Below, one piece after another: positions 25,908-58,948 of a stretch of 64,000 bases of DNA (position 1 is the first letter of the stretch; each line of letters opens with the position of its first letter). The position numbers and the translations under genes were made by a program. The DNA is from Cyrtodaria siliqua (Eukaryota; Mollusca; Bivalvia; Adapedonta; Hiatellidae): the NCBI GenBank assembly GCA_037043455.1, contig JAWPHD010001222.1, forward strand, positions 124,001 to 188,000, given 5' to 3'. Under the pieces are notes generated by a model. It saw nothing but the letters and a program-made list of their open reading frames with translations. It made no database searches and was not told the origin of the DNA.

Positions 25908-27267
25908 GACATACTAGCCTTTTCTGAAATTGGCTAAACCAAACTACACTTGATAATGACCTTACGTGTGATGCCTACTCAGCTCCTGAGAGAAAAGATC
26001 GCCCTGTAGATAGTCATGGTGGCGTTATGCTCTATATAAAAAATTCTATACATTACAAACGTAGGCATGATCTTGAACCGATGGGAATTGAATGTATATG
26101 GGTTGAAATCTTCATGAAACAGAAACGCATTCTCTTCGGGTTGTTTTACAGACCACCAAATGCAGACAGCATCCATAATTCCACTATTGAAAATTCAATA
26201 CACCTTGCAGTCGATACGAACATTAACGACATAATTATTACCGGTGATTTTAATTTTAATCTTAACAATGCTAATTCCTGTCGGCAAATAACGTCAATGT
26301 GTGAACAGTTCTCATTACACCAATGCATAAATGAACCAACTAACTTCACAGAAAATTAATCTTCAACAATCGACATTATTTTGGTTAATAATAAAGACAA
26401 TGTATTGCTAAGCGGTGTTGGGGACCCCTTTTTACAACAAGATGTTCGTTATCACTGTCCAATATTTGGTATTCTTAACTTTAAAAAGAACCATTATGAA
26501 ATCGTTTACACGGCATATCTGGTATTACGATAAAGGGGATTATGATACGTTAAGGCAGATGGCCCTAAATACCGACTATGCATTACGACAATGATATTCT
26601 ATGCATTACGACAATGATATTAATGTCCACACAAACAATATAACGGAACATATAATACACATATCAAAACAATGTATTCCAAATAAATTAGTTCGAATCA
26701 AGCCAAACGATCTTCCATGGATCACTAACCCTAGTAAATGCTTGATTAGAAAACGCACGCGAGCCTATCGAAAAGCTGAACGAATCAATACACCGGCGCA
26801 GTGGGCGAAATTTCGAAAACTTAGAAACGAAGCAATTGACTTTATTCGGAAAAACAAAGTTGTCCATCTTCAACAATTGTCTGAAAAACTTAAAACTGAA
26901 AATCGATCTTCTAAAAACTGGTGGTCAACGTTGAAATATTTTATGTTTTCAAATCGCAAGGAATCTGTTCCCCAGTTACACTCAAACGATTCTATTTTTA
27001 CCAATGACTTTGACAAAGCAAACTTATTGAATGATTTTTTAGAGATCAAACTCTTATGAATGACGATAATGCTCAAATTCCCGTCTTACCTACTGTAAAC
27101 GACTCGAACCTAAGTTCCATTACACTATGTCCTCTTGAAGTAAAACAAATTTTAGAAACCCTAGCCTTAGGAAAAGCTGTAGGTCTGAAAACACTTCTAT
27201 TTGGAGATCAAACTGTATCGTACGATACAAACATTCTTATATTCGGTGCGGTACACAATTATATTAA

Positions 27268-28289: not shown

Positions 28290-28985
28290 AAACAAAATGG
28301 CAGTCGAACATATAAATTACTGCAAGTTCCCCAAGTTGTACCCATGTACAGGGGCTCGTTTACGCAGGAGGACAAAACCCGTTTGATATATGTTGTGCCT
28401 TGAGTCCCTAAATGACCATACCAAATCATTTAAGATTATTCAGAATAATTGTCATTTCAAACATCGGCGTGCCGCAGCCGGGAATTGAACCTCGGACCTC
28501 TTGCTTACCGGGCAAGTATGCTCCCCATTACACCACCACACCATCCGATATTTGAACGGCAATTATGATTTTGATGTAGTATTTTAAACTTACAGAGCTC
28601 CAATATGTTTTTATTTCACACAAGTACTCTGTTGCGTCTAAATTGCATACCAAATTAGAATAAAATGCATTCACATTTGGACGACATATGCAATCGTGTG
28701 TGTGTGTTTTACACGATTACCCCCTATGGGTCCCCAAAATACGAAAATGTATTGTGCATCTCCACATCCTTAACTAAGAAATACACCACACACGAACTTG
28801 AAATATCAAAGGGTATAGAGGGATTTAGCGTCACAAGGCGGAAATTCCGTAATAGTAAATTACTGCAAGCTTCACAAGTTGTACCCCTGTAGAGGGACCC
28901 TTTATGCAGATGGTCAAAACTCGTTTAATATATATATTGTGCATCGAGTCCATAAATAACCATACCGAAATTGAATCATAACCAT
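28290..28985. repeat. Imperfect tandem duplication (~560-bp spacing)
   Basis: 'ttactgcaag...ttgtaccc...' and 'attcacatttggac...gattacc' blocks at 28316 and 28666 recur at 28858 and 28983. A SINE sits between the first pair. Confidence 0.65.
28465..28556 (-). mobile_element. tRNA-like SINE head (Thr/Gly-like arm pattern)
   Basis: On the minus strand 'GGTGTAATGGGGAGCA' (box A-like), an anticodon-like stem CTTGC/GCAAG, and box B 'GGTTCAATTCC' with one change. The fold is tRNA-like, but the loop lacks U33 and the repeat context argues for a SINE rather than a working tRNA gene. Confidence 0.55.
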
Positions 28986-29095: not shown

Positions 29096-29775
29096 ATAAC
29101 ATGATTTGACACTTTATCCCAACTAGATTCAAATCCAGCCGATCTCCAAGGAAGCACAAGGACGCCTCCAGCCAAATGGCCAACTTATTTTCAAATTTAG
29201 CAGGTCTCTAGGTAAAGGTCCGTGGGTGCTTACAGCCAGATGTTAAACTAGATTTCAAAATAAGTTGCTATTAGGGCAGGATCGCTTTATCACAATAAAC
29301 AAATCAAGCCTGGGTGAAATTAAACTGGCTAAATGCTGTCAATACGTGAAAACAAGCCGGCAGTCAATAATGATAAACCAGGGCTCTGCTTATCCCAATA
29401 AGTAACATTTTAATATAGCCCCACGGGATAAAGTTAGCATTCTTGCAACGCCTCATGATCTATCAGCCCGAACTGATGCGATTAAACAAAGTCAGAGGGA
29501 ATTGAGCCTTATTTTCTTGCAAGCATATATTTCACATTTCAAATCGAGAAGTTATTCCCTGTTTTCATCAAGATTTTTAAGATAATAATCCATTTCCGAT
29601 TGTAATCGTTTTCGTTTATTAATTTGAATTTTTTTACTATCTAGAAAATCAGCACGAATCACATCATATTCTACTTGACCTAGCTTACCTAATAGCAATA
29701 GTTTTCGATATTTATTTTTTAACTCTTCAAGTTTTTCGCATGCCTTTTCTACACATTTGTGTTCCATGTATAATA
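29096..29775. repeat. Polinton left terminal inverted repeat
   Basis: Begins ATAACATGATTTGACAC and continues as the inverted copy of 44099-45234. It includes the small TIR gene. Compared with the right copy it lacks about 95 bp near 29520 and the MITE. Confidence 0.9.
29552..29767 (-). CDS. Small charged coiled-coil protein in the TIR
   Basis: Intact 71-codon frame with Met at 29767. Very rich in Lys, Glu and Leu ('KLEELKNKYRKLLLLGKLGQ', 'MDYYLKNLDENRE') and predicted helical. It lies in the terminal repeat, so a second copy exists at 44101, broken by a MITE. Together with its position just downstream of PolB, this suggests a small conserved element protein of unknown role. It is the only uninterrupted frame of the element. 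I do not recognise a family. Confidence 0.6.
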   Translation of the reverse strand: MEHKCVEKACEKLEELKNKYRKLLLLGKLGQVEYDVIRADFLDSKKIQINKRKRLQSEMDYYLKNLDENRE

Positions 29776-32624
29776 AGTAAAATATTATATTTGATTTTAA
29801 TTATTATTTATATGCTAGTTTATCTTGGCTATTGTCTAATATGTACCTTTTGTCATCATATGCGTGACAAGCTTTTTTCATTAATTTCATAGCTGCTCAG
29901 CTGTTTGTTAGATCTTATGGTGAGCTTCTGTTGCTGTGAATAAAATATTTTTGTAGTTATCATGCGTTATCTGTTTTTTGACAACACATTTTTTGATACC
30001 TTTGCATTTCTTTATCTCAGTATTATCAGTCAAAATGTAGGAGCTTGACTTACTCCTCAATCCAACAAACTCTACGATCACCGCACCACAGGCTTCGTCT
30101 TTCATTTTGCCAATAACTTTTTTGTTATTGTTAAAGTGATACTCACTTTTTGGATTATAATCACTGTTATCAAAAAGTTCTTTGTCTTTGTAAAGATCAG
30201 CATACACATATTTGTTCTAATTTCATAATACAGAGAATCAGTGTCAGTAAACAACAACTTAACATTTTCATTGTATTTGTTTTAGCATAATTGTAGTGGA
30301 AATCATACATCAAGTATTTTGTTAAGTCTAGAATACACATACCAACATAACAAGGGCGATTTAAGACAAGTCTTTCTTTCACCCTATTGATTGCAAACAA
30401 GTTTTCACTAAACATCTTAAAAGAAATAAACGACGGTTTTGCCGCATATTTCAAAAGGACTTCCTCGTCATGCGTCAGCTTAACATTAACTCTCTTTCTC
30501 AAGTTTTCCACTGTTTTAGCAAAACCGAATTATTCAAAAGCTTGAAGAAATCTTTTTCGAAAGCGTTTTTTCCTGCTGTCCTTTTTGTAGTATTAAAGTC
30601 GATATACACTTTCAACCATTGAGACTCAACAAACTGGAGTATCCTGTGTATCTTTTTTACTTTCAATCCCAAACTCTCATACAACTTTAAATTTCTATAA
30701 TGTGTAACATATCTTCCCTTATCCTTCAATGTAGTAACAAGTTTCCTTATTTTACTTGTGCCCAAATCAAACTTATTCTTCAAGTTCTTGCAGTAGTCAT
30801 CTTTTGTATTTAAACTTTCCGGAGCAAGAGGATAATCATTATGCGAGTCATGCAACTCTTCGGGATATTCAAGGTCACACTCAACAATATATTTTCAAAT
30901 TTATCGACCCATTTAAAATTACCAGTTGGTAGCGGTTGGCACATGGCCCACCCGTACAAGTTGTTAGCATCAAGACACATTATATACTTACTCTGTTTAC
31001 TACTATCATAGTTTTTCATATACTTATTATTAGCTTTTGAATATCTAGTCGAAATATAACTCACGCCGCCTCTCATCCTTTTCTCTACAAACAGATATTG
31101 ATCAATATCTGTAATCAAGTCAAGTTTAATCCTAGTCATTTTCAAACAGGCATCCCAAGCTAAACCGAGACTATTGAAGTAATGACAATAGGCTGTGAGC
31201 TAGTAGGAGAAACCCTCCCCCCTCCACCCCACAGGAGAAATTTTGTAGGCTACGATTTTCTGAAAGAACACACAGTAAGTTTCAAAATGAGATATGTGTG
31301 CCATCTGAGCGTTAGGACTTTAGTGAGTTTTGGGGGAAAACATTGCGTTTTTAGACGAAAATCGCCGAAATCTGGAATTGTTTCTTAGAAAAAGAATGGA
31401 ATATATTAGAACCAATTTGAATTGATGGAATCTTTCTCGGAACGCATCTCTACGTGTCCCACCATATAATGTATGGATTCGATACTTAAATATTGAGATT
31501 TGAGTATTTTTTTTAAAGAATTCAATAAAATCTCTGATTTCTGTAATACATTGGGGATATTTAACTAAAAATTAGAAAAATATCTAATACAATAGAAAAA
31601 ATAAGTATTGTAACCTTTTCATGCAGGGTAAGGTCCAGTGATTAAGTAGAAAAAATTCCAAACCTCATGATGTTTGGAAATGCCTTAATTTTGGGGCGAA
31701 AAATGTGTATTTTTGTCAAAAATCGCCGGAATCTGGAATTATTTTTTGAAATTAGTTTTGAACATAAACTTATCAAACTGAAGCAATAGAATGTTGCACA
31801 GCATACATATTCAAGTTTTTCCTGACACAATATATAACATGTGCTCAAATATTGGCATTTTAGGGCAAATTGGCATTTTAGGTCAAAATGTTGGATAAAA
31901 TGACAAAAATCACTGATTTCTGTAATCCACTGGGGGTATTGGGATAAATATAGAAACAAATTTAATATAACGAATAACGACACATTGTAATAATTTTGGA
32001 TAGAAAAAGGTCCAATAATTAAGTAGAAAAAAATCCCGAACGGTATGATGCTTGAAAATGCCTTAATTTTTAGGCGAAAAATGTGTATTTTTTGTCAAAA
32101 ATAGACGGAATCTGGAATTATTTTTGAAATAGTTTTAACATAAACTGATCAAATTGTAGTAATACAATGTTGCACAGCATACATATTCAAGTGTTTCCTT
32201 GCATCATATATAACATATCTGCTGAAATATGTTGGAAAAAAGGACTAAAATCACTTATTTATGCTATCCATTTGGGGTATTGGGTTAAAATCTAGAAAAA
32301 TGTATAATACCGGTACAATAGAAAAATAGACTGTAAGCTAGTAGGAGTAACCCTCACCTCAGGAGGAATTTTGTACACCCTACTTTTCTGAAAGCTTATT
32401 ATGTATAGAGCATTTTGGAATATGTACGTGTACCAACTGGCGACTTGGACTTACCATGTTACTGATGAATCATGAATTTATGAAGTAGTAATTAAAAATA
32501 ATGTAAACGTATACAGATAAAACTACCTACAAATAAGGGATCATATGGTAGCAATATGAACTATGTATATATGTAAATCAATAAATACACGCCAATGGGC
32601 TTGTAAAAAAGTTAATATATATAG

Positions 32625-34025
32625 GAAAATATTACCGGCATTGCGAACATGGTACATAGAGCTATATACAGTATACGTTATAAATAGAGAAATAGCGTTG
32701 AGCGACCCTCTGCGTATGGCCACTGGGCCGACCCATATATTTTGCGACACAACGGGACCGGTGGCCAGTCGATGGCAAAGGTCCCCAGTACATGTGGCAC
32801 TCGGTCGCAAGTCCATATTAGGGGAAGGCTACCCGAGTTCGAGTCTCGAACATGGCACAAGAGCTATATACAGTTATATAAAAGGATATATCGTTGAAAG
32901 AACTTCGGCCGACGGCCGCTGGGCCGACTTACAGATTGGGTGACACAACAGGATTGGTGGAAAGTTGTCGGCAAAGGTCCCGGCAACGCGTGGAATTCAA
33001 TCGCTAGGCTGTATCAGTGGGGAGGCTACCCGAGTTCGGGTCTCGAATCTCCTAACTCACTTAGAATTGAATTGAATTGAATGTTGTTTAACGGCTCATC
33101 AACACAGTATAGGTTATTTAGAGCCGCCCCAGAGAGAGGGGAAGGATACATAGGAATCCGGGAACCTGCCCTACTCTTATTATCGAATAGATTCCTATGG
33201 TTCTTTAACGTGCTCGGAGGATAGACCGACACACGGGACCGCCCGGTTTACGTCCCCATCCGTCGGACGGGGCTAAGGGAAAGTGTCTTGCCCAAGAACA
33301 CACCGACGGAACTCAGTGAGCTTTATACAGTATAGTTATATATGCATAGAAGAAATAGCGTTAAGCGACCCTCGGCCGATGCACCTATCCACATATTTTG
33401 TGACACAACGGGACCGGAGACCGGAGACCATGGGTCCCCGCAATGCGTGGTACTCGTTCCCTAGGCCAGAGTGAGGGCTACCCGAGTTCGAGTCTCGAAC
33501 ATGGCACATAGAGCTATATACAGTTATATAGAGGGAAATAGCGATGAACGACCTTCGGCCAATAGCCGATACGCCGACCCACATATTTTGTGACACAACG
33601 GGACCGGTGGTCAGCCGTCTGCAATGGTCCTCGCTACGCTTGGCACTCGGTCCCTAGGTGGTATCAGGGGAAGGCTACCTCAGTTCAGGTCTCGAACATG
33701 CCACCTAGAGCTATATAGTAAATAGAATTGAGCGAACCTCAGCCGACGGCCGCTGGGCCAACCCACAGGTGTTGTGACACAACGGTAACGGTGGTCAGCC
33801 GTCGGCAACGGTCCTCACTACGCGTGTCACTCAGTCCGTAGGTCGTATCAGGGGGAAGGCTTTCCGAGTTCGGGTCTCGAACATGGCACCTAAAGCTATA
33901 TACAGTATAGTTATATAGAGAGATATAGCCTTGAGCGACCCACAGCCGACGGCCGCTGGGCCGACACGCAGGTTTTGTGACTCAACGGGAACGGTGTCCA
34001 GCCTCGGCAAAGGTCTCGGAGTGGT
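32625..34025 (+). repeat. Satellite-like array, about six units of ~190-200 bp
   Basis: Each unit contains 'gagctatatacagt', 'gagcgaccctcggccgac', 'ttttgtgacacaacgggacc', 'ggcactcggtccctaggt' and 'ggctacccgagttcgagtct'. The last block holds the palindrome GTTCGAGTCTCGAAC, whose left half fits a pol III box B. One unit is interrupted at 33047-33320. Confidence 0.85.
33047..33320. mobile_element. Insertion in the satellite array
   Basis: Starts with (GAATT)n, then 'ggttatttagagccgcc', 'ttctttaacgtgctcggagg' and 'aagtgtcttgcccaagaaca'. The 'gttatttagagccgccc' piece also ends both tandem units at 16862-17488, so this is a dispersed repeat, possibly SINE-like. Confidence 0.6.
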
Positions 34026-35263
34026 ATATTATTGCACATTGGACTGCAGAAATGTTATGATATTTTTTTTCGTTCTTTCTATGCACTTTCAATTTTTCCC
34101 CAATACCTCAATGCATTACAGAAATCAGCGATTTTAGTCATTTTTTCAACATATAAATACTTGAGCATATATGTTATATCTGATACAATAAATGATATGG
34201 AAGTGTATAGTGTGCAACATGTTATTGCTTCAATTTGATAAGTTCATGTTCAAACTATTTTCAGTTCTAATATATTCCATTCTTTTTTTAAAAAATATTT
34301 CCAGATTTCGGCGATTTTCGTCTAAAAACGCAACGTTTCCCCCCAAAACTCACTAAAGCCCATGCAACGCTCAGATGGCACACATGTCTCATTTTGAAGC
34401 TTAATGTATGAAAATCATACCCTACAAAATACCCCCTGGGAGTGCGGGTGGGGTCTACAGCCAGCTAAAGAACTACAAGGATCTAATTTGTAATACACCC
34501 CACTTTTTTCGTATCCAATATTAAAACATATATTATTTTGTTTTTTTCTATTTTTGGGATTTGTTTTAATGTAAAGGAAATGTAATTCCACTGTAATCAA
34601 GATCAACAATGTGCTTTTTATACTTTGTTATTTTTTGGGGCTCTCTTGCAGCAGGAAATTTATATGCTATATGGCACCACCTGAAGCATTCATTGTCTTC
34701 TTCATTTTTTATATTTATTGAACCTTTTCTAGGATGTGAAAATTCTTCTGGTAACTTTAAATAAGAGCTGCCTCTCAAAGGCTTATACTTCACCCTGTTT
34801 ACATAATGCATATCTACTGATTCATTTACCCAGCCACTTCCCCATGAAAGCCAGCTCCCAATTCTGTCCATAATTGCATTAGTTGCAGTATCCAAAGCAT
34901 TTTTAATCTCGTTTTCGCCTAAGATTATTGTTGCCAAGGATGTAAAGTATGCTGTTTTGTATGTAGTTGCGAAAGTATCATCTTTGTTTCCAACCAATTT
35001 AGCGAAAGTCATTTTCAAAGTAACACTCAATTTAAAACCGCCCGTCCTTTTTAATTCCATCTTGAGGAATTCTGTCACTGTTTCTCGCGTCAGACGAAGC
35101 TGAGAGAGCGGATCTAATCTATCTACAATACCCACAAAGAAAACCTTACTATATTGCTTCGGGGATTTTTCAATTTCTTTCACACTCATTATATACTATT
35201 ATATAGATAAATAATATTTCTTTAAACCCTTATTAATTCATTAATTAATTTAACCCGAATTAA

Positions 35264-35264
35264 A

Positions 35265-35306
<42 letters not shown>
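35264..35306. repeat. Poly-C run, >40 bp
   Basis: Homopolymer inside a small minus-strand gene of the element. The length is probably unreliable. Confidence 0.85.
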
Positions 35307-35319
35307 ACCTTCAATAACT

Positions 35320-35599
35320 CAGCATAGTAGTAATTAAAGAAACTAATATCTGCCGGGCCTTTAGTTGCTAGCGATCGAGATCTTTTTGTCGCACAATTTG
35401 TTTGCCCTTCTGATATCATGTTTTCTTATTTTCCATGGCAGTTTCATCTTTTGAGCTTTGGTTATAATCTTTTCAGTCAAATCCTTGAAGTTTATAAAAA
35501 TTAATAGGTCCCTGTCCATTTTTTGCATACCTTCAAAATCAACAAGGCTTGTTTTGCATATTCCTTTCTGAGACTTTCTATGTCATCTGTGTATACCAT
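35320..35599 (-). pseudogene. Small Polinton gene upstream of PolB, frameshifted
   Basis: Minus-strand frame beginning MVYTDDIESLRKEYAKQA at 35599. It continues in a second frame with 'DRDLLIFINF' and a basic tail before running into the poly-C tract. About 80 residues recognisable, charged and helical. Same direction as PolB, from which it is separated by about 150 bp. Function not known to me. Confidence 0.45.
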
Positions 35600-35811
35600 A
35601 TAATATTATGCTATTCTTAATCTTTTAAGTATTAATTAATTAAATCAATAATAATAATAGTATATTATATGGCAAACTGCATATATTATAAGAGAGTATT
35701 AGGTGTTTTTGCTTCTTTCGAGTTTTCCATGGATTGTTTTTTATTTTATATAGTCGACAAAAAGACACATTGTAAAGATTGTGTTGGGTATAGACTTTGT
35801 TACAACTGCAC

Positions 35812-36129
35812 CTATGCATGCGTAAATTGTAATAGTACTTGCAGGGTTTTTGATGGGGGAACGTATTTGGGACTTACAATGGATATGATCTTGTTGCAGA
35901 TTATCGAGGAGTTCGCAAGATCAAATTGGATTGTCGATTCCTGTTTTGCTTCCCGGCTTTTTTGTTCTAGACGAAAAACGTTTTGGTGCCTGACTTTTGG
36001 TGTTTGTACATCCTTGGCTACTTTAACCAAACCATAATATCTGACTTGATTAGCTTTAAAACATTCTGCTTCTGTTCCGATTTTTTTCCCAGATGGGATT
36101 GTTTTTATTCCGCAATAAACTTTAGACAT
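35812..36129 (-). CDS. Small conserved Polinton-type protein (VYCGIKTIPSGKK)
   Basis: Uninterrupted 105-codon frame starting MSKVYCG. The N-terminus has the block 'VYCGIKTIPSGKKIGTEAEC' plus 'NQVRYYG', a pattern I associate with a small protein near the centre of some Polinton-like elements. The C-terminal half is less conserved and may run beyond the original end. It starts the leftward gene group, opposite the ATPase, so the roughly 90-bp gap to 36222 probably held divergent promoters. Molecular role unknown. Confidence 0.5.
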   Translation of the reverse strand: MSKVYCGIKTIPSGKKIGTEAECFKANQVRYYGLVKVAKDVQTPKVRHQNVFRLEQKSREAKQESTIQFDLANSSIICNKIISIVSPKYVPPSKTLQVLLQFTHA

Positions 36130-36230
36130 TATACTAGTAGGTTAGATAATATTAATATTATCCAAGTATATTATTATAATGGAAAGATATGAAGACAGAC
36201 AACGGTAATTTCAAATAGATATGGAACCTC

Positions 36231-36830
36231 ATGCCAGACTGTTGTTTGAGGATGCTTATTTGCGGTAATTCAGGATCTGGTAAGACAAACACATTAGTAC
36301 ACATGTTTAAACCTTTAGATTACTATGACAATATGTATTTGTTTGCTAAAAACTTGGAGCAGTCAAAGTACAAGGTCTTATCACAAAATCTTGAAAAGAT
36401 AGCAAAAAAGAATAAAATACCAGTCGAAGACATACTAGAATGCTCAAATGATCAAGTTATCCCTGTGAATGATTTAGACTCTGATGATTATGTTTGTGAT
36501 CACAACCAAAACGACAATATTAATTATTTCATCCAGGGAAAACACACACATTGTTGCATGATTTACTTGTCACAATCCTACTACAAAACTCCCAAAGACA
36601 TTCGTTTGAACTGTTCTCATTATATTTTCTTTGCAACTCCAGTTAATCATGAGCTGGGTATGCTTTCCAACGAACAAGGTGTCAGCAAAGAGCAGTACAA
36701 AAAAGCAACTGACAAACAGTATGATTTTCTGTATCTTGATCGTCCTAGAAAGTTGGTAAAAAAACAACTTCACTGGCGAGTTATAGCAACGCTATTACAA
36801 AGCCCAGGCAAAGCCTCAGGTGAAATTTAA
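36231..36830 (+). CDS. DNA-packaging ATPase (A32/FtsK-HerA type)
   Basis: Motor that would pump the element's DNA into a capsid. The frame has Walker A 'GNSGSGKT' at 36264-36287. The Walker B position is degraded ('DLDSDDYVCD' in place of a hydrophobic strand before the acidic pair). Then come the conserved 'CCMIYLSQSYYKTPKDIRLN' block with sensor Asn and the C-terminal 'YDFLYLDRPRK'. About 200 residues, a little short for the family. An earlier ATG at 36222 is out of frame with the domain, suggesting a 5' indel. First gene of the rightward group. Open throughout but probably not functional. Confidence 0.85.
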   Translation: MPDCCLRMLICGNSGSGKTNTLVHMFKPLDYYDNMYLFAKNLEQSKYKVLSQNLEKIAKKNKIPVEDILECSNDQVIPVNDLDSDDYVCDHNQNDNINYFIQGKHTHCCMIYLSQSYYKTPKDIRLNCSHYIFFATPVNHELGMLSNEQGVSKEQYKKATDKQYDFLYLDRPRKLVKKQLHWRVIATLLQSPGKASGEI

Positions 36831-36843
36831 TCTAATCATATTA

Positions 36844-37415
36844 ATGGGACTTTTTAATGATCTTAGAAGCGAGGAAACTAGTTCAGGCGGTGTTAATATT
36901 ACAAATTTTGGTATTGTGCTGTCTGAGTATGTAAAACAGAAACATCTGGTTAATTATCTTCAGAAGGGTAAAAACCAGGGAAATATTCTGAGAAGTGATC
37001 TTAACATGGATAAAATAGAATTATCAATGTTGGCAATCCAGAAAAAGTAGATGACGCAGCAACAAAGCATTTACTGTAAGAAGAGTAGCAAAGAGCATAC
37101 GTGATTATAGTATTGATAAAATTCCAGACATGATGAAAAAATTGACAACAGGGGTTGGTGACAAAATAAGTCTGATACACAAGTAATTACAAACACAAAC
37201 CGCGAGAAAATGATTGAAACTCAAAACGGTTTAAAAGACGAAATACAACTTCTGGGTAATGCTTTAAAAGAGTTAGAAAAGAAAGAAGATGGATTGGAAG
37301 ATGATAGCAAGCTCTATAAAAAGTTAGGCGAAAAAATACAAGTTCGTATTGAAGGTATTAATGAGCGAATTAAAGAAATCAATAAACAAATGGTTGATAA
37401 CAATGAACGAGTACG
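36844..37415 (+). pseudogene. Coiled-coil protein of the Polinton, frameshifted
   Basis: Three partial frames: 'MGLFNDLRSEETSSGG' to 37050, a middle stretch ('DYSIDKIPDMM') and 'ALKELEKKEDGLEDD' with 'ERIKEINKQMVDNNERV' to about 37415. The C-terminal half is a strong Leu/Glu/Lys heptad region. It overlaps nothing and follows the ATPase within 15 bp. Cut at its 3' end by the RT retroelement. Probably a structural or scaffold protein by position; family not recognised. Confidence 0.55.
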
Positions 37416-37424
37416 AACTGTGCT

Positions 37425-38735
37425 CCACGTGTCGCAGATTTGTTCTTATTTTGCTATGAAAGGGATTTCATGTTGAGTCTTTCACCAGATACCCAGGCAG
37501 ATGTTATTGAAGCCTTTAATGATACCTCTCGGTATCTGGATGACATATTGAACATTGACAACCCTTTGTTTCCAACTATGGTTAATTATATTTATCCTAA
37601 AGAACTTCAGCTTAACAAAGCTAATATATCTGATAATAACGCTTCTTTTCTTGATTTAGATCTCTCGATTGAAGATGGTAAAATAATTAGCAAAATCTAT
37701 GACAAGAGAGATGATTTTAATTTTGACATTGTTAATTATCCCCACTTGGATGGGGATGTTCCCCGAGCAACTTCTTATGGGGTATATGTGTCTCAACTTA
37801 TTCGTTTTTCTAGAGCTTGTACTCGAGATGAGGACTTTAATATTCGTAATCTTTGTATAACTAAAAAGTTACTCAATCAGGGTTACCGTTACCATAAACT
37901 TCGTAAAACCTTTGCAAAATTGTATTATCGTAACCCTGATCTTCTTTCCAAATATAAAAGTAATTTAAGGACTCTTCTGCGACAAGGACTATCACAACCT
38001 GACTTCTATGGTGATGTGATTTATAAACTTCGTAAGATTAAGGTCATGATCACTTTCATACTATCTTTGTTAAACTTGTTAAAAAGTTTATCAAAAGAGG
38101 TTATGACCCTATCATTTTGCAACGTACTGCATGCTTGGTGGTGGACCCTTTTACAGTTCGCCACTATGCTTTCCTTTTTAATTGTATGATGACCAGACAG
38201 GCTGTGGACCCTATGATGACGCCTACCTAAAGCCCATTGGGACGGTGGCGTTTGATGTTTGTCCATGATCTTTCTTGTCGTGCCCTTAATGGTTTATTCT
38301 CTTACTGCTCTGGCTTCTGCAAATTCATTGAGTACCTTCATTGTGGCTTTCTAGGCTATTGTTTTTTTTGTATTATATTTACACGAGCATATTTGTGTTT
38401 TACTTATATTGCCTATTGATGCTGCCTTGTTGGTTAGAGATAAGATCTTGGCGGAGATTTCTTTATTTACACTGTCCTGTTTTAATGGGATGACAGTAGG
38501 GTAAGTGTGAGGTTTGGTGCACCCTAGAACCGGTTTAAACCCCCAGTGGCCTACTTTGCCACTGACCGTTCCAAGGCGGTAGCCCTATTGTCAACCCTTT
38601 TGTGTTTGTGATGTCGTTTGCATTTATTATTGCTTCTGCCTTCTTGTTCGTCTGTTTGCGTGTTTGTTTCTATGTTTTGTGATTGACTGTCCTCCTTGAA
38701 TGCTACTTTCCCTGTCCGATCTTTTTATATTTCTT
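37425..38735 (+). mobile_element. 5'-truncated retroelement with RT C-terminus (Penelope-like?)
   Basis: The frame at 37440-38060 starts inside an RT palm: 'LFLFCYERDFM', catalytic 'SRYLDDIL' (YxDD), then 'NNASFLDLDLSIEDGKIISK' and 'YGVYVSQLIRFSR' thumb-like blocks. It then decays by frameshift (38060-38420). The 3' untranslated part ends at 38735, defined by identity to the 50-bp copy at 25858-25907. Class is uncertain: YLDD and the thumb sequence suggest a Penelope-like or related RT. Inserted between the coiled-coil and minor capsid genes. Confidence 0.7.
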
Positions 38736-39078
38736 TGCTGCAAATTCTATCGTAGAAACTCCTTTTACGCTGGAGCCACGTTACTGTTTTTCTGCCACTT
38801 GATGCGAGCGAGATAGCACCTGAAACAATGCAGGGATCATGATGAAGACCTTTCATGAACATGAACAAAAAATGATAAAATGAACATGAATTTGGGGGGA
38901 TTCTACCCCTCTGCCTACCCCTCCAAAGGGATCTGCAGTGGCCCTATTATTTTCCCCGTGACCAAACGGGGACCCCCGAGAACCACACAGGGCTCGCACT
39001 AATCAAGTTTTCAATTTTGAAAAATCTAGTTTTAAACTGTATTACAAAGGCGATTAATATTATCTACTAATATATATA
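38736..39078 (+). other. Unassigned DNA between retroelement and capsid gene
   Basis: C-rich patch near 38900 and 'ggggacccccgagaacc'. Could be further inserted DNA or Polinton spacer. The last about 80 bp look like element spacer in base composition. Confidence 0.35.
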
Positions 39079-39838
39079 ATGGAACAAAACATTGTACTAT
39101 CATCAGAAAAAGCTTCAATAATTAATAGCTCAAATACACCGAGTAATTTTACAACCGTATTTGACAGACCATTAATATTGGACAAGAACAAACAGTATGG
39201 CATTGGAATTGACAAGATTAATTCTATGACTTACTCATGATATAATATTAGTGAGGATTTTAATAACAAAGTGATAAGGTATCACAATGGAACAGATTGG
39301 AAAAGTATTATTATTACAAATGGAAATTACAGCTATGCCGATATTGACAATTATATAAAAGAAACATTGACTGTAAATGATGATTTAACTGATGACTCAC
39401 CTGTTCCAATAAGAATTGAATTTGATTTATCGTTTCAAATGTTTAGTGACCATTCATAATAATTTCAGGCTTGATTTAAGAGAATCAAACTTTCACACCT
39501 TAATTGGGGTTGACAAAGATGCAGTTATTAGAGAAACTAAATTTGGGACAGAAGTAACAAACATAACAAATTATATTATTACTTTATATATTCATTGTGA
39601 TTTGATAAGTAATTATATTGTTGATGGATCATATGGGGATGTTATTTATGAAATAAGTACAGCTGACCTTACGAGGTCATATCCTTTTAAGGATGAACCG
39701 ATAAGAGTCGGGTTCTGTGAAGTAAACAAAACGATCATTAACAGTATTAATATTTACATAACTGATTCCTCCGGTAAAATTATTAATCTTAATGGTGTCC
39801 ACACATCATTTCGATTTGTTTTAAAAGATTTAATGTAA
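39079..39838 (+). pseudogene. Minor capsid (penton-type) protein candidate, one stop and one frameshift
   Basis: Starts MEQNIVLSSEKAS at 39079, with a TGA at 39238 and a frame change near 39445, ending at 39838. Blocks seen: 'TTVFDRPLILDKNKQYGIGI', 'NFHTLIGVDKDAVI' and a C-terminal 'TRSYPFKDEPIRV...' region followed by 'INSINIYITDSSGKIINLNG'. The beta-rich, about 250-residue layout and its place before the small virion proteins and the major capsid gene match the penton-like single-jelly-roll protein of Polintons. Assignment rests mainly on position and composition. Confidence 0.6.
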
Positions 39839-39848
39839 TATAACTTAT

Positions 39849-40301
39849 ATATGGCAAGATTAAAAAAGTTTATGACACTAGCACGGGAACATATACTCAA
39901 GTTGATCGATTAACTGGGGTTGTTATATATGGCAAGATTAAAAAAGTTTATGACACTAGCACGGGAACATATACTCAAGTTGATCGATTAACTGGGGCTG
40001 GCATATTTGATATTTTTTCAAAGGTTGGATCAAAAATATTTTGCGAGTCTGTAAAAACAGCAGGCAAGAAAGCATTAGAAACTGCTGGTAAACAAAATCT
40101 AAGAAAGTGGTTCTAAAAACTTGGGGATGAAGTAGGAAAAATGGCTGCTGAAAATAAGTTTCGGTTATTAAACCTAAAGGTGAGATAATTTTAAAAGAAC
40201 TTACAAAGGCAGATAACAAAAAAGAAGTTGTAGCTGAAGAAGATGTAAATGCAAATAATAACAGATTACTATCCGGAAGAGGAACAAAAATATTCATGTA
40301 A
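39849..40301 (+). pseudogene. Small glycine-turn virion-type protein with 78-bp in-frame duplication
   Basis: Reading 'YGKIKKVYDTSTGTYTQVD' then 'GAGIFDIFSKVGSKI' and a Lys/Ala-rich helix ('KKALETAGKQ') to an end near 'LLSGRGTKIFM'. The first 26 codons are exactly tandemly duplicated (39847-39924 and 39925-40002, period 78, in frame). One stop near 40116 and a frameshift near 40160. The basic, Ala-rich composition and position just before the capsid gene suggest a minor virion component. No firm family. Confidence 0.5.
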
Positions 40302-40334
40302 GATTTAAACGATTAATTTAATCTAATTACTAGT

Positions 40335-41588
40335 ATACATTTCAAAGTGATAAATATAATATTAGATATGAACATGTACCTATTCAGTTAGATACTCCTA
40401 TAACACAACCAGGAAATGCTACCAAGCAAATAAAAAGTGGCTATAAATTTACGTTAAATGATAGAAGTTCCTACTTTGGTATAATGCATATTTTGAAATC
40501 AGTTTTCAAGTAAACAAACTTGCTGATGGAGCCGCTTTCGCAAACTCTGACAGAAATGCTTTAATTAACGATGCAGCTTCGCCGATTGATCAAATGCAAG
40601 TAAAGCAAAATGGAAAAATAGTTTACGATGGAAATAATCTTCACAGATTTGTTAATGTCAAAAGCTTGCTTGAAATTTCTGACGATTATGCGAAGACAAC
40701 CGGAACATACGAATACTTTTATTTAGATAATACAACTGCTGCAGAATCTCGAGATGATCAAGCTGGTTATAACCTAGGATTTACTGCTCGTCATGCTTTA
40801 ATCATAACTAATCAAAAAGTTGATTCTATAATTCCATTAAACAAATATTCATTTTTCGAAGGTTTAGAAACAAACATGCTTCCCCATAGTCAGATTCAAC
40901 AAGATTTAGCTTGCAACTGACAGATGATAATGTGCTAATTTTCAAATCAAGCGGTGACGATGGTCGAGTAGTTATTAATAAATTAGTTTTGTGGATACCT
41001 AGAATGATATTTAACTTAGATGGTTTAAGTTACCTAATGACAAATCAAATGACAACAACTAGATGGACTTACCTTCGTGAAATGATACAAGAAAGCGGAA
41101 GTACTCAACTAACAGAATCTGTATTTAGAATAACGGCTGGAGTCAAAAGTCCAAACCATGTTTTTGTTTATCTGCAAAGGTCAGACAAGAGTTATTCTCA
41201 AACACAAAATCCTCATCTTTTGGATACATTTAAGCTCAATGCTGCTGATGCCCATTGCTATTTACAATCTAGATTGGAAGTTGGAAATGGAGTTTATTAT
41301 CCAGAAACCGAATATAGTTATGCTAATATAATAAGAATATTCAGAGATGTTATTAATTATTCTTACGAACAAAATGTTAAAAACAATGTAATTTTAAAAA
41401 TCTCTTCGGAATGATATATTTCGATTTAAGTTACACAGGTAATGAAGTCAGTGTTGACCCAAAACAACCAAGTTTGAAATATAAACTAAGCAACGTTCCT
41501 ACCACCATATATAAAGTTTTATGCTTTGGTCTTATACAAGGAAAATGTTGTTATTGATGCTGTTACAAATGAATTGGTGGTAGTCTAA
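40335..41588 (+). pseudogene. Major capsid protein (double jelly roll), three breaks
   Basis: Main shell protein of the virion. Blocks in order: 'YEHVPIQLDTPIT' near the start, 'GYKFTLNDRSS', a break at about 40480, 'IVYDGNNLHRFVNVKSLLEI', 'IIPLNKYSFFEGLE', a frame change at about 40915, 'VVINKLVLWIPRM', 'TTTRWTYLREMI', then after another change at about 41412 the C-terminal 'YFDLSYTGNEV' and 'VVIDAVTNELVVV'. About 410 residues in total. No start Met is preserved. Capsid signature blocks and order match Polinton/adintovirus major capsid proteins. Confidence 0.85.
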
Positions 41589-41643
41589 GCTAAAGCGTAT
41601 CCTCCAGCCTAACGGCTGTAGTTTAATCTAACTTATAATATAT

Positions 41644-41990
41644 ATGACTTACGTAAAGTATTCGATAGATTTGACAGAGGGGCAAAAAATAAAGTTTAGC
41701 AAAAGCATAAGAAAACAAAAGTGAATTAACGCTCAGGCTAAAGAATAATTAACTGGGGATTTTCCATTGTTGTTGACAGCTACTCAGATTAACAATATTT
41801 ACAAAGCTAAATCCAACGGACATGGCTTAGACATAAATATATCAAAATCGCAATGAAATCTCAGTCTAAAAATGGAGGCTTTTTGGGAGAATTAGCCGGT
41901 TTGTTTTTGACTAAAACAATATTAACAACAGTTGCCAGACCAATCAGTAAACTATTCGGAAATGGAAAGTTAACTATACCTAGTGATAAA
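41644..41990 (+). pseudogene. Small Polinton protein with GGFLG turn, copy 1
   Basis: MTYVKYSIDLTEGQKIKFSK, two stops, 'LTATQINNIYKAKSNGHGL', then 'NGGFLGELAGLFLTKTILTT'. A helical 'QIN..KAK' segment followed by a Gly-rich hydrophobic segment that could insert in a membrane. The following frame repeats this layout, suggesting two related modules or one gene split. Located between capsid and protease. Confidence 0.5.
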
Positions 41991-42252
41991 AAAACAAGCA
42001 CTACTTGAATCAATTGTGCTAACACCGTCACAAAGAAAAAAGATAATAAAGTCAAAAGGTTGCTGCCCTATTAAGGTGACAAGGAATCAACAGCAAGACG
42101 GGGGATTTCTTGGACTACTTGCGTCGTTAGGAGTTCCTTTAATTGGATATCTTATTAGTGGTTTGACGGAAAAAGGTTTACAAGTAGGTAGAAAGGGAAA
42201 AGGTTTACAAGTAGACTCACAAATAATTAGACCATATAGAAGTATCCCATTC
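41983..42252 (+). CDS. Small Polinton protein with GGFLG turn, copy 2
   Basis: Frame 'LLESIVLTPSQRKKIIKSKG', 'DGGFLGLLASLGVPLIGYLI', then 'GLTEKGLQV', with a 21-bp direct repeat giving two 'KGLQV' blocks. Same plan as the preceding protein. The hydrophobic Gly-rich segment resembles membrane-active virion peptides by composition only. It reads without a stop into the protease region, so its original end is uncertain. Confidence 0.45.
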
Positions 42253-42258
42253 GTAAAA

Positions 42259-42692
42259 ATGTTAATTTTCAAAAACGAGCCTACTTTAGACATAATAAAT
42301 TGGGTTAAGCAGTTAGGTATACAGAAATTCAGGGGGTGTTTAGCAAGAACAAACTACCGACAAAACAAAATAAACAAGAATGCGGTATTATTAATCTTGA
42401 TGATTATACTGGACCTGGTACACACTGGACTTGCTACTGTAATAAGTATTATTTTGATCCGTTTGGTCTAAGTCCACCAAAAGAAGTTTTAACGTACATA
42501 CCCAACACAAAATACAACACAATTCAGTACCAAGATAAAACAAGTGTCTTATACAGATATTTACGTTTATTCTGCATTAACAAGTTGCAAGAAGGAAACA
42601 GCGTGTACGATATTCTTTATAAAATATTAAAACCTTACAAACCTATGGAAAATGAAAACATTATAAAATCATATTTTGTAAACAAAGTTTAG
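42259..42692 (+). pseudogene. Adenain-like cysteine protease, catalytic Cys lost
   Basis: Maturation protease of the capsid. Starts MLIFKNEPTLD at 42259, frame change near 42335. Visible: 'QECGIINLDD', catalytic His in 'GTHWTCY' (42423-42425), the acidic residue in 'YYFDPFG' (42456-42458) and the segment 'TSVLYRYLRLFC'. In this family the last segment carries the nucleophilic Cys; here the position is Tyr (42552-42554) and neighbouring small/Cys positions are Arg. With the frameshift, the enzyme could not work. About 145 residues. Confidence 0.85.
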
Positions 42693-42745
42693 CCTAATCA
42701 TATTATATACGAGATACTGTGTAAAAAAAAAGATGATGACTGAAA

Positions 42746-43167
42746 ATGTCAATCCTCAGTATATTCTAGCAAAAAAATGGTAGAAGAAAGTTAAAAGCAA
42801 CTTGCGCATCTTGTGGTAGTACTAAAACACAATTTGTTGGAAGTACACAAAGTGGAAGTATTGATATTCATAAAGCTTTACTCCCTTTGTTGCCTAAAAA
42901 GGGGCTAACAATTCATGGTTATAAATATTGCGGTCATGTGGAGAACCATCAAATGAATTAGATGCTATTTGAAAAAAGCATGATTATTGTTATGACGAAA
43001 ATCCTAGTAATAAATCAATGTGCGATAAAAACATGCTGGCCGGTTTAAAAACGAGCAAATCCAAATCATTTGGAGAAAAACTCGCCAAGAATGTGATAGT
43101 CAAGCCCGTAATTAGTGCAAAATATAAACTAGGACTTGGAGCATCAAAAACCCAGAAAAGGCGTTGA
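42746..43167 (+). pseudogene. Phospholipase A2-like virion protein, two breaks
   Basis: A short 5' part, a stop at about 42767, then a zinc-knuckle-like 'KATCASCGSTKTQFVG', 'GSIDIHKALLPLLP', 'HGYKYCG' (Ca-loop side, frameshift about 42937), 'SNELDAI', a stop where the active-site helix starts, and 'KKHDYCYDENP' plus 'SMCDKNML'. The HDYCY and CDKNML blocks are the catalytic helix pair of secreted/viral phospholipase A2. In parvoviruses such a domain breaches endosomal membranes; here it probably served entry. The His of the HD pair is present. Basic C-terminus. Confidence 0.8.
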
Positions 43168-44071
43168 GAGATGGACTGATAAGCTAGCCGATGAACTTCA
43201 TAAACCTATACGCAAAAAAGTTCACTCAACGCAGTGTGATTGTTAATGAAATTGATAAAATATGGTCGGCTGATTTGGTTGATACGCAATCCTTTTCAAA
43301 ATATAAAAGGTGTAAAATACTTGCTAACTGTTATTGATGTATTTAGTAAATTTGCCTGTTCCGAATAAAACTGGTATAGAAATTACTAAAGCTTTCCAAA
43401 AGATTATAAGTACAGGGAGACAATGTAAACTGCTCTGGGTTGACCACGGTGTGGAGTTTTATAACAAGACATTAAAGCAATTTCTTGCTGATAATAATAT
43501 CGAAATGTATCACACGTTTAATTTCGGGAAAGCTGTAGTAATTGAATGATTTAATAGAACATTGAAAGAGAGGATGTGGAAATAGTTTACAGCAAACAAT
43601 ACAAATACATATTTAGACGTGCTACAGGCGAAGGTTGATAAGTGCAATAATACAGAACATCGGAGTATTAAAATGACACCGACTGAAGCAAGTGATGAGG
43701 AGAATAGAGGATTAGTGTATTTCAACTTGTTTAGAAAGATGAAAATTAATAAAGCTTTGCCAAAGTTCAAAATAGGAGACAAGGTTAGAATTTACAAACA
43801 TAAAAGAACGTTTGACAAAGGTTATACTCCAAATTGTACCGAAGAAATATTTGTTATTGATAAAATTCAATATACATATCCTGTGGCGTACAAAATAAAA
43901 GATTTGAACAACCAAAACATTGACGGGAGCTTCTATGAATTGGAGATCAAGAAATATTCAGAATTGAAAAAGTAATACTATGTGATAATAAAAAGAAACA
44001 AGCATTAGTTAAATAGAAAGGTTACAATGAGAATTTCAATAGTTGGGTACCGTTTAAGGATATTCAAGACA
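43161..44071 (+). pseudogene. Retroviral-type integrase with C-terminal chromodomain, several breaks
   Basis: Inserts the element DNA. N-terminal 'VERWTDKLADELHKPIRKK', frameshift at about 43215, then the rve catalytic core: first Asp in 'WSADLVDT' (43272-43274), 'LTVIDVFSKF', second Asp in 'LLWVDHGVEFYN' (43442-43444) and Glu in 'KAVVIE' (43544-43546), immediately followed by a stop. The second spacing (33 residues) fits Polinton integrases. After 43975 the other frame shows a chromodomain-like 'FRIEKVILCDNKKKQALVK', a stop, and 'GYNENFNSWVPFKDI'. All three acidic residues are preserved, but stops make it dead. Confidence 0.9.
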
Positions 44072-44100
44072 TAAAAGTTCGTTATATTACTTATTATATA

Positions 44101-44710
44101 TGGGAACAAAAATGTGTAGAAAAGGTATGCAAACTACTTGAGGAGTTAAAAGACAAATATAGGAAAGCATTGCTATTAGGTAAGCTAGGTCAAGTAGTAT
44201 ATGATGTGATTCGTGCTGATTTTCTAGATAGTAAACAAAAAGTCAAATTAATAAACGAAAACAATTACTATTCATAATTTTGATAGAGCATCATCAAAAA
44301 AACTGACCAATCAGTGATCAGAAAAAAGACATAACCAATACATTCTGGTAGGTGATAAACTCGGTCTTTATCCTTGATGTTCAACCAAGTTTACTGTTAA
44401 AATTAGAGTATCTATAGTGTGATTCTTTTAAAACCCTGCCTATTTCATGCACATTCATGCAAATTGATTCAATATATGTATCTTTTAAAAGCAAAATCTT
44501 GAAAATTATCATCTTTTTACTCTGCCAAAGATTTTTATTTTACTATAGATCCTAAGGATAAAAACTGAGAAACACAAATTTTATCACCTACTGAAAATAA
44601 AATAAAATCTCAACATCTCTGCAATGCAAAATTATGAATCGGAAATGGATTATTATCTTAAAAAACATGATGAAAACAGGGAAAAACTTCTCGATTTGAA
44701 TTGTGAAATA
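44101..44710 (+). pseudogene. Second copy of the TIR gene, broken by a MITE
   Basis: Counterpart of the 71-codon gene at 29552. Start ATG present but frameshifted at once, several stops, and the reading frame is split by the 368-bp MITE. Ends with 'gaaaacagggaaaaacttc'. Confidence 0.75.
44271..44638. mobile_element. 368-bp MITE (family TTCATAA) in the right TIR
   Basis: Perfect 12-bp inverted termini TTCATAATTTTG...CAAAATTATGAA. Same family as 9421-9790. The left TIR (about 29595) preserves the empty site, proving insertion after the Polinton was in place. Target duplication not clear. Confidence 0.85.
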
Positions 44711-45253
44711 TATATTGCAGGAAAATAAAGTATTCTATGATGTCTGTGATATGTATAGTGATGACGAGGATGATTGTCCTGTTCCTTCCGACTTTGTTTG
44801 ATCGCATTAAAAAACGATTTCAGAATCGATTCCCTCTGACTTTGTTTAATCACATCAGTTCGGGCTGATAGATCATGAGGCGTTGCAAGAATGCTAACTT
44901 TATCCCGTGGGCCATATTAAAATGTTACTTATTGGGATAAGCAGAGCCCTGGTTTATCGATATTGACTGCCGGCTTGTTTTCACGTATTGACAGCATTTG
45001 GCCAGTTTAATTTCACCCAGGCTTGATTTGTTTATTGTGATAAAGCGATCCTGTTCCAATAGTAACTTATTTTGAAATCTAGTTGAACATCTGGCTATAA
45101 GTACCCACGGAACTTTGCCTAGAGACCTGCTAGATTTGAAAATAAGTAAGCCATTTGGCAGGAGGCGTCCTTGTGCTTCCTTGGAGATCGGCTGGATTTG
45201 AATCTAGTTGGGATAAAGTGTCAAATCATGTTATCAATTATCCTATGATAAGT

Positions 45254-46087
45254 CAGGGAGTACGTTATAGGGAGGAGAAACGGGCTCGTTTTGCCGATTT
45301 ATGTTGTCGCGCATGTGTTTCACTACTCCGTGAAAATGACTACTTCCGGTTGTTTCGCGAGTGTGTGAAAAATAGCAAATTCTTATAAATTATTACACTT
45401 ACAAACTCAATAAAGGAGCTAAATGTAAACATAAGTATTATTTATTCACATTGTGTCCTCTGATACAGAGCGTGTATTTGTTTGCATGTTTAAAAGCACA
45501 TTTTACCAGACGGTTCCGTGTAACAAAGATGGCGCCACTCGGCGCCAAGTAAAAAATGGTGACAGTGTATAGCTATTGTAAACGAGATACGAGACTACGG
45601 GTTATTTAGGCATTAATAATAACAAAAAGTGAATAGTAAACATATTTATCTTTGTCAAGAAGGTAATTTCATGGTGGTGATTATAAGACAAAGCCTAAAA
45701 AGAGGTGATGAAAATGTGACTTTTGAGATATCAGCTAAATTTTTAATTTTATAGAATTAAAAATGGTGTGGAGCTATTGCAAACGAGATACGAAGTATGG
45801 GTTATATTAGGCATTAATAATAACAAAAAGTGAATAGTAGACATATTTATCTTTGTCAAGAATGTTATTTCGTGATGTTGATTATAACAGAAAGCCGTAA
45901 AAAGGGGCTGTAAAAACTGCCTAATTTGAGATGTTGGCTGAAATTTTAACTTTTCAAATGTAACGCGCTTACGATCGATTTACCTGTATCGATAAAATAG
46001 TAAATGGCGGCGTTCTAGCGCGACAACATAAATCGATAAACTAGAGCGTTTATGAACCCGTTTCTCCTCCCTATAACGTACTCCCTG
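45254..46087. mobile_element. 834-bp inverted-repeat element, 7-bp TSD
   Basis: Termini CAGGGAGTACGTTATAGGGA are perfect inverted repeats for over 30 bp, flanked by GATAAGT on both sides (45247-45253, 46088-46094). The interior holds two tandem units of about 200 bp (45569 and 45771: 'aaacgagatacga', 'ggcattaataataacaaaaa'). No transposase. The element begins 20 bp outside the Polinton end. Confidence 0.88.
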
Positions 46088-46381
46088 GATAAGTATAGAA
46101 ACTAGGGGTATCAGTCAAGTTTTTTCCGAAGGGGTTTGCAAAACGACTTTTAAATTTGTTGGTGGGGCTTGACAGCACAATGTTACCCCGTCTTGGAACT
46201 TATTGTTGTTTCGATCAGTTTTTCCTGGTGTTTTTAGTTTGTTTTTCGTGCCGTGACATGCAAATTTGCCAACTTGTCATGTAGGGGACCCCGAGGGGAA
46301 AACTGTGCTGATACCCCTAGGTTCATGTACATTTCCTGTTCATGATTTATGGAGCGGACCTTAATATACGTATATAAGAAG

Positions 46382-58280: not shown

Positions 58281-58948
58281 TTACTGAAAATATGTATGGT
58301 ACAGGAATCGTTTATCAACAAAAGTTCTCTGGCAGGCATGTACTGGCTTTGGACATGCATTGCCTTTCATTTGTAACACCTCTGCTTTCGAGGTGCTCAT
58401 ATTCACTTTATATATATTGCCCAAATGTCCAGCGGTATTGTCTCTCTCCGTCAGAAAAATAAACTGTCCGTTATGATGTGTCGTCCCTAGCAGATTTCCG
58501 TCTGTCGGAACTTTAAATCTGACGTCGGTAAAACCAAAATCATCAGCAACTTTCACTATTCCGTTACCATCCTCGCCAATATATGTGATAAATATTCTCT
58601 CTCCAATGGTCGTGGTTATGAGACGTGTACAGGTGAACGGCAGATTTGAGACCACCGATGTCTCCTTGAGACGCGAATGAAAACACTGAACATAACTCAA
58701 GCGTTCCCCGCCCTTCCCGACCCCTCCGAACACAAGTATCTGTTCTCCGCTGACGGCAGCAGCTGTTGAGTGAACCGGGTGAGTAAGCTCACCCACTGTC
58801 CGCCAGCGTTGACCCGGAATGTAATATTCTTCAATCGAGCCCATCACCTGATTGGCTTTGGGCATTTTGAAGTTATTGCCACCAATACAATACAGTGAGT
58901 TTCCCACGGATACCATACAATGCTGACAACGACCTTTCTTCAGCTGAC
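58281..58948 (-). CDS. Kelch-repeat protein, terminal coding exon
   Basis: C-terminal exon of a Kelch-like protein on the minus strand, about 222 codons, stop at 58281. A clean acceptor 'tcttccacag' precedes position 58948. It opens with 'QLKKGRCQHCMVSVGNSLYC' and shows Kelch blades with the paired-Gly and Tyr/Trp pattern: 'YCIGGNN', 'EEYYIPGQRWRTVGEL', 'AAAVSGEQILVFGGVGKGGE' and weaker later blades. Phase 1: the split Gly codon joins the exon at 63656. Kelch propellers usually bind substrates for Cullin-3 ligases when preceded by BTB/BACK domains, which lie outside the window. No AATAAA was seen close downstream. Confidence 0.85.

What the first reader, a model, noticed from the sequence alone, without database searches (positions are those of the whole stretch)
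29096..45234. Complete but decayed Polinton/adintovirus-like element with PLA2 protein and chromodomain integrase
Seen: long inverted termini and a full set of genes (PolB, ATPase, two jelly-roll-type capsid candidates, protease, PLA2-like, integrase) in two outward-facing groups. Known: this gene combination defines Polintons/adintoviruses. Inferred: an ancient integration of about 11 kb, now dead. The small size and the PLA2 entry-type domain make it a useful fossil of a lineage with probable virion-forming ability.
Basis: partly seen in the sequence, partly recalled or inferred. Interest (0 to 1): 0.85.

Follow-up and report, generated by a model that had tools for sequence, protein, structure and literature searches.

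The report
Decayed Polinton provirus with nested transposons
This is a broken copy of a well-known kind of virus-like transposon (a Polinton) in a large, probably animal, genome that holds many relatives of it; it is ordinary of its kind, and its chief curiosity is that an abundant, apparently selenocysteine-type retrotransposon has landed inside it.

Summary
A terminal inverted repeat (TIR) pair frames divergent Polinton-type genes: PolB and two small genes on one strand; ATPase, coiled-coil genes, penton, major capsid (MCP), protease, PLA2 and chromodomain integrase on the other. Window frames alone match Pfam weakly; copies in the same genome support the labels (PLA2 2.8e-15, rve 1.2e-12, Chromo 1.2e-7). 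PolB matched no family model and the capsid fold was not confirmed.

Corrections. "Complete" is wrong: about 434 residues of PolB are missing, the left TIR lacks its outermost ~285 nt, and the right end lies near 46334. Taking off four inserts leaves about 11 kb.

The copy belongs to a multicopy family with (AGT)2 ends and 6-bp target duplications. A sister subfamily has copies with long open frames. PLA2 and chromodomain integrase in Polintons are published (PMC4642659, PMC5803895), as is Maverick abundance in a clam (PMC8905726). New member of a known kind.

The parts
29096..29767 (.). left terminal inverted repeat, outermost ~285 nt missing
29507..29779 (-). small coiled-coil-like gene inside the left TIR
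   Evidence: 54% aa identity to a 114-aa open frame in L067
29908..31190 (-). PolB, C-terminal part, several frame breaks; visible DANNLY, NNS and DTDS
   Evidence: 56-84% aa identity to L061 residues 670-1064
31190..34470 (.). nested repeat block with imperfect inverted ends and inner ~190-nt repeats; the PolB middle is lost here
34480..35195 (-). PolB, N-terminal part
   Evidence: 62-70% aa identity to L061 residues 2-235
35361..35582 (-). conserved small gene (here called x355)
   Evidence: found beside PolB in siblings
35812..36141 (-). conserved small gene (here called x358) at the divergent centre
36219..36830 (+). A32-like packaging ATPase
   Evidence: Pox_A32 1.5e-5, above cut-off; 1,719 homologues of 1,768 candidates, best 82%
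36787..37405 (+). coiled-coil genes (cc1, cc2), cut by the insertion that follows
37409..38996 (+). nested 5'-truncated Penelope-like retroelement and what follows it; its exact 3' end was not mapped (match to four other copies followed to ~38414, where those loci end)
37413..38230 (+). C-terminal part of its reverse transcriptase, with RYLDD
38205..38265 (+). SECIS_1 element at the end of the reverse-transcriptase frame
   Evidence: 39.4 bits, cut-off 35; fold z -2.3
39067..39838 (+). penton (minor capsid) gene, broken
   Evidence: 85-89% aa identity to a 223-aa open frame in L064 over 39067-39589; label from gene order
39844..40116 (+). small gene between penton and MCP (called pVI in the scripts, a label only)
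   Evidence: conserved in relatives
40334..41414 (+). major capsid protein gene in three frames
   Evidence: 78-91% aa identity to L048 open frame; label from gene order
41632..42260 (+). conserved gene(s) of unknown role
42271..42692 (+). adenovirus-type cysteine protease
   Evidence: 80% aa identity to L067 frame, which scores Peptidase_C5 8e-4, just below cut-off
42682..43167 (+). PLA2-type protein with N-terminal zinc-ribbon-like part, split by a frame break
   Evidence: relative L067 PF08398 2.8e-15, DUF5679 8.1e-12
43128..44076 (+). integrase with C-terminal chromodomain, broken
   Evidence: relative L067 rve 1.2e-12, Chromo 1.2e-7
44092..44238 (+). second copy of the small TIR gene, right arm
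44095..46334 (.). right terminal inverted repeat with a ~390-nt insert (~44246-44636) and a ~840-nt insert (45250-46090)

Best explanation
A dead copy of a Polinton (Maverick; adintovirus-like) provirus. Inferred life cycle from the family: the chromodomain integrase inserts the linear element with a 6-bp target duplication; a protein-primed PolB copies it from its inverted ends; capsid, penton, protease and ATPase build a particle; the PLA2 protein helps entry. This copy belongs to an older subfamily (A). After insertion it lost its left end and the middle of PolB and took up several other transposons, among them an apparently selenocysteine-type Penelope-like element between the ATPase group and the capsid group. 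Shown here: gene content and order, TIRs, termini and target duplications of siblings, nested insertions. Inferred: integration, replication and virion steps.
For: TIRs. Siblings with the same TIR and (AGT)2 ends: of five distinct sites with both ends in view, three have perfect 6-bp duplications (C2278, C7051, and C16700, which is the same site as C2060), one matches 5 of 6 (C231), one does not match (C1580). ATPase through MCP in the same order in 16 of 20 MCP-bearing loci, the other four being cut or unrecognised upstream. Pfam on relatives' unaltered frames. Identity to subfamily A copies 79-97% by gene, lowest in C231; to subfamily B 70-93%.
Against: No Pfam PolB match, even for the 1080-aa relative; PolB rests on motifs (recalled), gene position, length and a weak endonuclease VII-like stretch (phrog_423, 1.5e-3) of the kind that PMC5803895 also lists, weakly (E 0.02 and 0.32), for the Spodoptera Maverick PolB. 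No solved-structure match for PolB or MCP. Structure predictions failed. The window copy itself shows no target duplication.
Confidence: 0.95

Rival explanations
1. The reverse transcriptase at 37409-38230 is a genuine gene of this Polinton lineage, making it a DNA virus with its own RT.
For: It lies on the same strand as, and between, two Polinton genes; two of the six TIR-sharing copies whose inside was read, C231 and C444, also contain it.
Against: Not found in 20 of 20 MCP-bearing loci; the interval between cc2 and penton is in view in 17 of those 20 and also in C2278, C231 and (L064) C364, each without RT. In C231 and C444 it lies elsewhere in the element. It is 5'-truncated. The same RT family has 127,974 first-look candidates in this genome (95 scored); the piece is 95.5-96.1% identical to four copies fetched from elsewhere.
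Confidence: 0.02
2. The inverted arms are a chance pairing of separate repeats, and the genes belong to more than one element.
For: The termini do not match a target duplication in the window; several foreign inserts are present.
Against: Sibling C2278 has the same arms, the PolB-to-integrase order (without MCP) and a perfect 6-bp duplication.
Confidence: 0.01
3. The element is a Polinton-like transposon with no virion stage at all.
For: No particle was sought or seen; three of three other gene-bearing subfamily A copies lack recognisable MCP; 12 of 20 fetched MCP loci do not keep a 345-aa uninterrupted frame over the last 1,060 nt.
Against: MCP frames of 420-427 aa without stops in 48 of 150 listed places, as expected if capsid function was kept in subfamily B.
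Confidence: 0.2

Closest known systems
Spodoptera frugiperda Mavericks 1 and 2 (PMC5803895, passages read)
   Same: ATPase, chromodomain integrase, PLA2-domain protein, protease, PolB with a weak endonuclease VII-like part
   Different: There the PLA2 domain is the N-terminal part of a capsid-like protein (CAP); here it stands in a 162-aa frame with a zinc-ribbon-like start (L067).
Vertebrate Mavericks (PMC8097293, passages read)
   Same: (AGT)2 end motif, 6-bp target duplications, TIRs, PolB/ATPase/protease/capsids/integrase
   Different: Here a small gene lies inside both TIRs; the window copy is truncated and decayed.
Adintoviruses (PMC11071296, section 16 and passages read; Starrett 2021 not held)
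   Same: PolB plus hexon-type capsid candidate plus rve integrase with C-terminal chromodomain
   Different: OTU domain and BLAST-recognisable hexon were not tested here, so alpha/beta placement is open.
Naiad Penelope-like elements (Craig and Arkhipova 2021, recalled; not held)
   Same: RT of Penelope type (type by recollection of its motifs); 3' SECIS; in-frame TGA at the same place in two of two copies that keep that region
   Different: The N-terminal GIY-YIG domain was not sought; the clade name is by recollection.

Membership tests
Polinton/Maverick | terminal inverted repeats | tested here: met
Polinton/Maverick | (AG)3 or (AGT)2 end motif | tested here: met
   met in siblings, AGTAGTATAGAAAC; the window's own right end has decayed and its left end is missing
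Polinton/Maverick | 6-bp target-site duplication | tested here: met
   three perfect of five distinct sibling sites, one 5/6, one none; not met in the window copy
Polinton/Maverick | protein-primed PolB | tested here: inconclusive
   motifs and position fit; no Pfam, NCBIfam or PDB match
Polinton/Maverick | retrovirus-type integrase | tested here: met
   rve 1.2e-12 in relative; window 65% identical
Polinton/Maverick | packaging ATPase | tested here: met
   Pox_A32 above cut-off
Polinton/Maverick | adenovirus-type cysteine protease | tested here: inconclusive
   Peptidase_C5 8e-4, 19.6 bits against cut-off 21.3
Polinton/Maverick | double jelly-roll MCP and single jelly-roll penton | tested here: inconclusive
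   conserved genes in the expected order; folds failed; no PDB match for MCP
Adintovirus | integrase with C-terminal chromodomain | tested here: met
   Chromo 1.2e-7 in relative; window 79% over that part
Adintovirus | PolB with N-terminal OTU-like domain | not tested
Adintovirus | hexon recognisable by BLASTP to reference adintoviruses | not tested
   reference sequences were not at hand; only the ATPase and the RT were sought in viral contigs, without a relative found; MCP was not
Naiad-type Penelope-like element (nested) | Penelope-type RT with SECIS and in-frame TGA | tested here: met
   SECIS reaches its cut-off in four of seven sequences scanned (window, L058, L075, L076; not L055, L073, L074); the TGA is in two of two copies that keep the region; the window copy is truncated before that place
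Naiad-type Penelope-like element (nested) | N-terminal GIY-YIG endonuclease | not tested
   window copy is 5'-truncated; not sought in other copies

The most novel reading that the evidence does not exclude
The host genome carries a lineage of Polintons (sister subfamily B) that is still moving and perhaps still forming PLA2-armed particles, while subfamily A, of which this is the most complete of the four gene-bearing copies read, is its extinct relative; and a selenocysteine-type Penelope-like element repeatedly uses Polintons as landing ground.
Probability: 0.3. Interest if true: 0.55.

Novelty: new member of a known kind. Interest (0 to 1): 0.3.

Why it matters
It adds a well-bounded Polinton family, with termini, target duplications, two subfamilies and PLA2 plus chromodomain integrase, to a 2.88-Gb, probably animal, genome, and it shows how such a copy decays by loss and nested insertion. 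It also warns that a reverse transcriptase found inside a Polinton can be a passenger. Nothing in it overturns current views.

Tried and rejected
RT as a Polinton gene: rejected (not found in 20 of 20 MCP-bearing loci, 17 with the interval in view). Viral-contig scans with the RT and ATPase pieces and with their alignments: no relatives. Genome-contig scan with the ATPase alignment: none. Structure predictions of the MCP alignment and penton piece failed (pLDDT 33 and 31), so no fold search was run. PDB search of the RT piece gave only rotavirus VP4 matches at E 0.12 or worse, taken as chance. Pfam, NCBIfam and PHROGs gave no polymerase match for PolB; the genome search with PF03175 did not complete. 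Mosaic origin (capsid from subfamily B, rest from A): not supported, since A copies are mostly as near as or nearer than B at genes both keep (exceptions: pVI, and C231 at the ATPase and pen3), but MCP could not be compared because the three gene-bearing A siblings lack it.

The 150 places (window included) and the 95 are the scored rows only, of 3,914 and 127,974 first-look candidates, so genome-wide counts are lower bounds. Open-frame counts (48 of 150 between 420 and 427 aa without stop; 66 of 95 exactly 496 aa) were made from columns I retyped from those outputs. The 20 loci were taken from near the top of the list, so they lean to near relatives of the window's MCP. In four of the 20 the run from ATPase to MCP is not seen whole (L031, L032, L034, L044); in L032, L034 and L044 the cc2-penton interval is not in view (for L032 it is in L064).
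Full report
What is there. Aligned, the arms give 630 matches and 45 mismatches. Between them lie two divergent gene groups. Window frames alone gave little: of the pieces scanned only the ATPase passed a Pfam cut-off; rve, C5 protease and PLA2G12 sat at E 0.03-0.04.

Siblings support the gene labels. The genome holding the window (2.88 Gb, 26,948 contigs, unnamed) gave 43 matches to the TIR, many in pairs, and 150 listed places, the window's own included, at 85% or more to an MCP piece (150 scored of 3,914 candidates). Window pieces were compared by tblastn with 20 MCP-bearing loci: 16 of 20 show ATPase, two coiled-coil genes, penton, a small gene and MCP in one order. Six of these copies were read further: the upstream stretch shows PolB pieces in five and ATPase to penton in the sixth (L064); the downstream stretch shows further genes, protease, PLA2 and integrase in five and none in the sixth (L069, C9933). 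Of the six TIR-sharing copies read inside, three carry most genes (C2278, C231, C444) and three are short with few genes (C1580, and C16700 and C2060, which are one site). Unaltered frames of relatives score PLA2 (PF08398) 2.8e-15, DUF5679 8.1e-12, rve 1.2e-12, Chromo 1.2e-7 and Peptidase_C5 8e-4, the last just below its cut-off. The window's integrase, PLA2, protease, MCP, penton and PolB are homologous to these, in several frames.

Against: the 1080-aa relative of PolB has no Pfam, NCBIfam or PDB match. It does show DANNLY, NNS and DTDS in order (motif meaning recalled) and a weak endonuclease VII-like stretch, which PMC5803895 also lists, weakly, for a Maverick PolB. The jelly-roll folds of MCP and penton remain unshown, because both structure predictions failed.

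True ends. Of five distinct sites with both ends in view, three have perfect 6-bp duplications (GACATT, CACATC, ATGGTG), one matches 5 of 6, one does not match; for four further copies only one end was in view. PMC8097293 (passages read) gives (AGT)2 and 6-bp duplications for Mavericks. In the window the left arm is cut at 29096. The right arm continues to about 46334, its outermost part at 73-75% identity, interrupted by a ~840-nt insert with inverted ends and a short flanking duplication.

Decay. PolB residues ~236-669 of the relative have no counterpart in the window; a block of 31190-34470 with imperfect inverted ends and inner repeats sits there. Window 37409-38996 stands where eight relatives compared have ~390-1030 nt of other sequence. 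A further ~390-nt insert lies in the right arm.

The passenger. A SECIS_1 element (39.4 bits, cut-off 35) overlaps its end. Relatives abound: 95 scored of 127,974 candidates, 66 of 95 with a 496-aa open frame. Of four copies fetched, two keep the region upstream, and in both the frame is bounded there by an in-frame TGA at the same place; SECIS reaches the cut-off in two of the four, in the C444 copy but not in C231. This fits the selenocysteine-bearing Naiad elements reported from clams and spiders (recalled; the paper is not held). It is a passenger: not found in 20 of 20 MCP-bearing loci, 17 with the interval in view, and at other places in C231 and C444.

Subfamilies. By nucleotide identity the window goes with C2278, C231 and C444 (A: 79-97% by gene, lowest in C231) and is further from six B copies (70-93%; PolB 72-83%), the gap being largest in PolB and the TIR gene and small in ATPase, penton and the first part of integrase. 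The three A siblings lack MCP; the window keeps it, broken. B includes MCP frames of 420-427 aa without stops in 48 of 150 listed places, though only 8 of the 20 fetched loci keep 345 aa uninterrupted over the last 1,060 nt. Nearest pairs among the 20 reach 99.4-99.9% over MCP; some may be the two alleles of one insertion. For one such pair, C3702 and C16398, the match (95.4% over 3.4 kb beyond MCP) stops 66 nt before the end of the C16398 copy and what follows differs, so they look like separate insertions, but the end of C3702 was not found. This speaks for, without proving, more recent movement of B than of A.

What is known. PLA2 in Polintons: PMC4642659 and PMC5803895 (passages read). Chromodomain integrase: PMC5803895 (passages) and PMC11071296 (section 16 read). 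Capsid genes: PMC4028283 (passages read). Maverick abundance in a clam, 7,091 copies and 1.69% of one Mercenaria assembly: PMC8905726 (passages read). So the element is a new member of a known kind. 

Noticed in passing
window 38205-38265; L058 4518-4578; L075 3039-3099; L076 3052-3112: SECIS_1 at the end of the Penelope-like reverse-transcriptase frame; the SECIS overlaps the stop codon of the frame.
   Followed up: partly
L074 and L076, in-frame TGA 47 codons before the RT match: A TGA at the same place in both copies that keep the region, and 66 of 95 genome hits with the same 496-aa open frame, as expected for a selenocysteine codon.
   Followed up: partly
29507-29779 and 44092-44238: The same small coiled-coil-like gene lies inside both TIRs, pointing outward; it is also found at both ends of sibling C2278 and, at 46-55% aa identity, at the integrase-side end of three subfamily B copies (L067, L068, L071). 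Role unknown.
   Followed up: partly
31190-34470: Nested block with imperfect inverted ends and up to six inner copies of a ~190-nt repeat; not identified.
   Followed up: no
45250-46090: Insert with CAGGGAGTACG inverted ends and an ACTTATC duplication, hAT-like by look only.
   Followed up: no
G000 C1580, C16700, C2060: Short copies (6-7.6 kb) keeping TIRs but few genes, as expected of non-autonomous derivatives.
   Followed up: partly
28470-28542: tRNA-like match (RF00005, 41.3 bits) just outside the element; ARAGORN found none.
   Followed up: no
25928-27059: Remains of what looks like a non-LTR retrotransposon: an endonuclease piece matches Exo_endo_phos_2 (9.5e-5, below cut-off).
   Followed up: no
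58281-58976: Kelch-repeat frame, probably a host gene exon (Kelch_1 2.5e-13).
   Followed up: no
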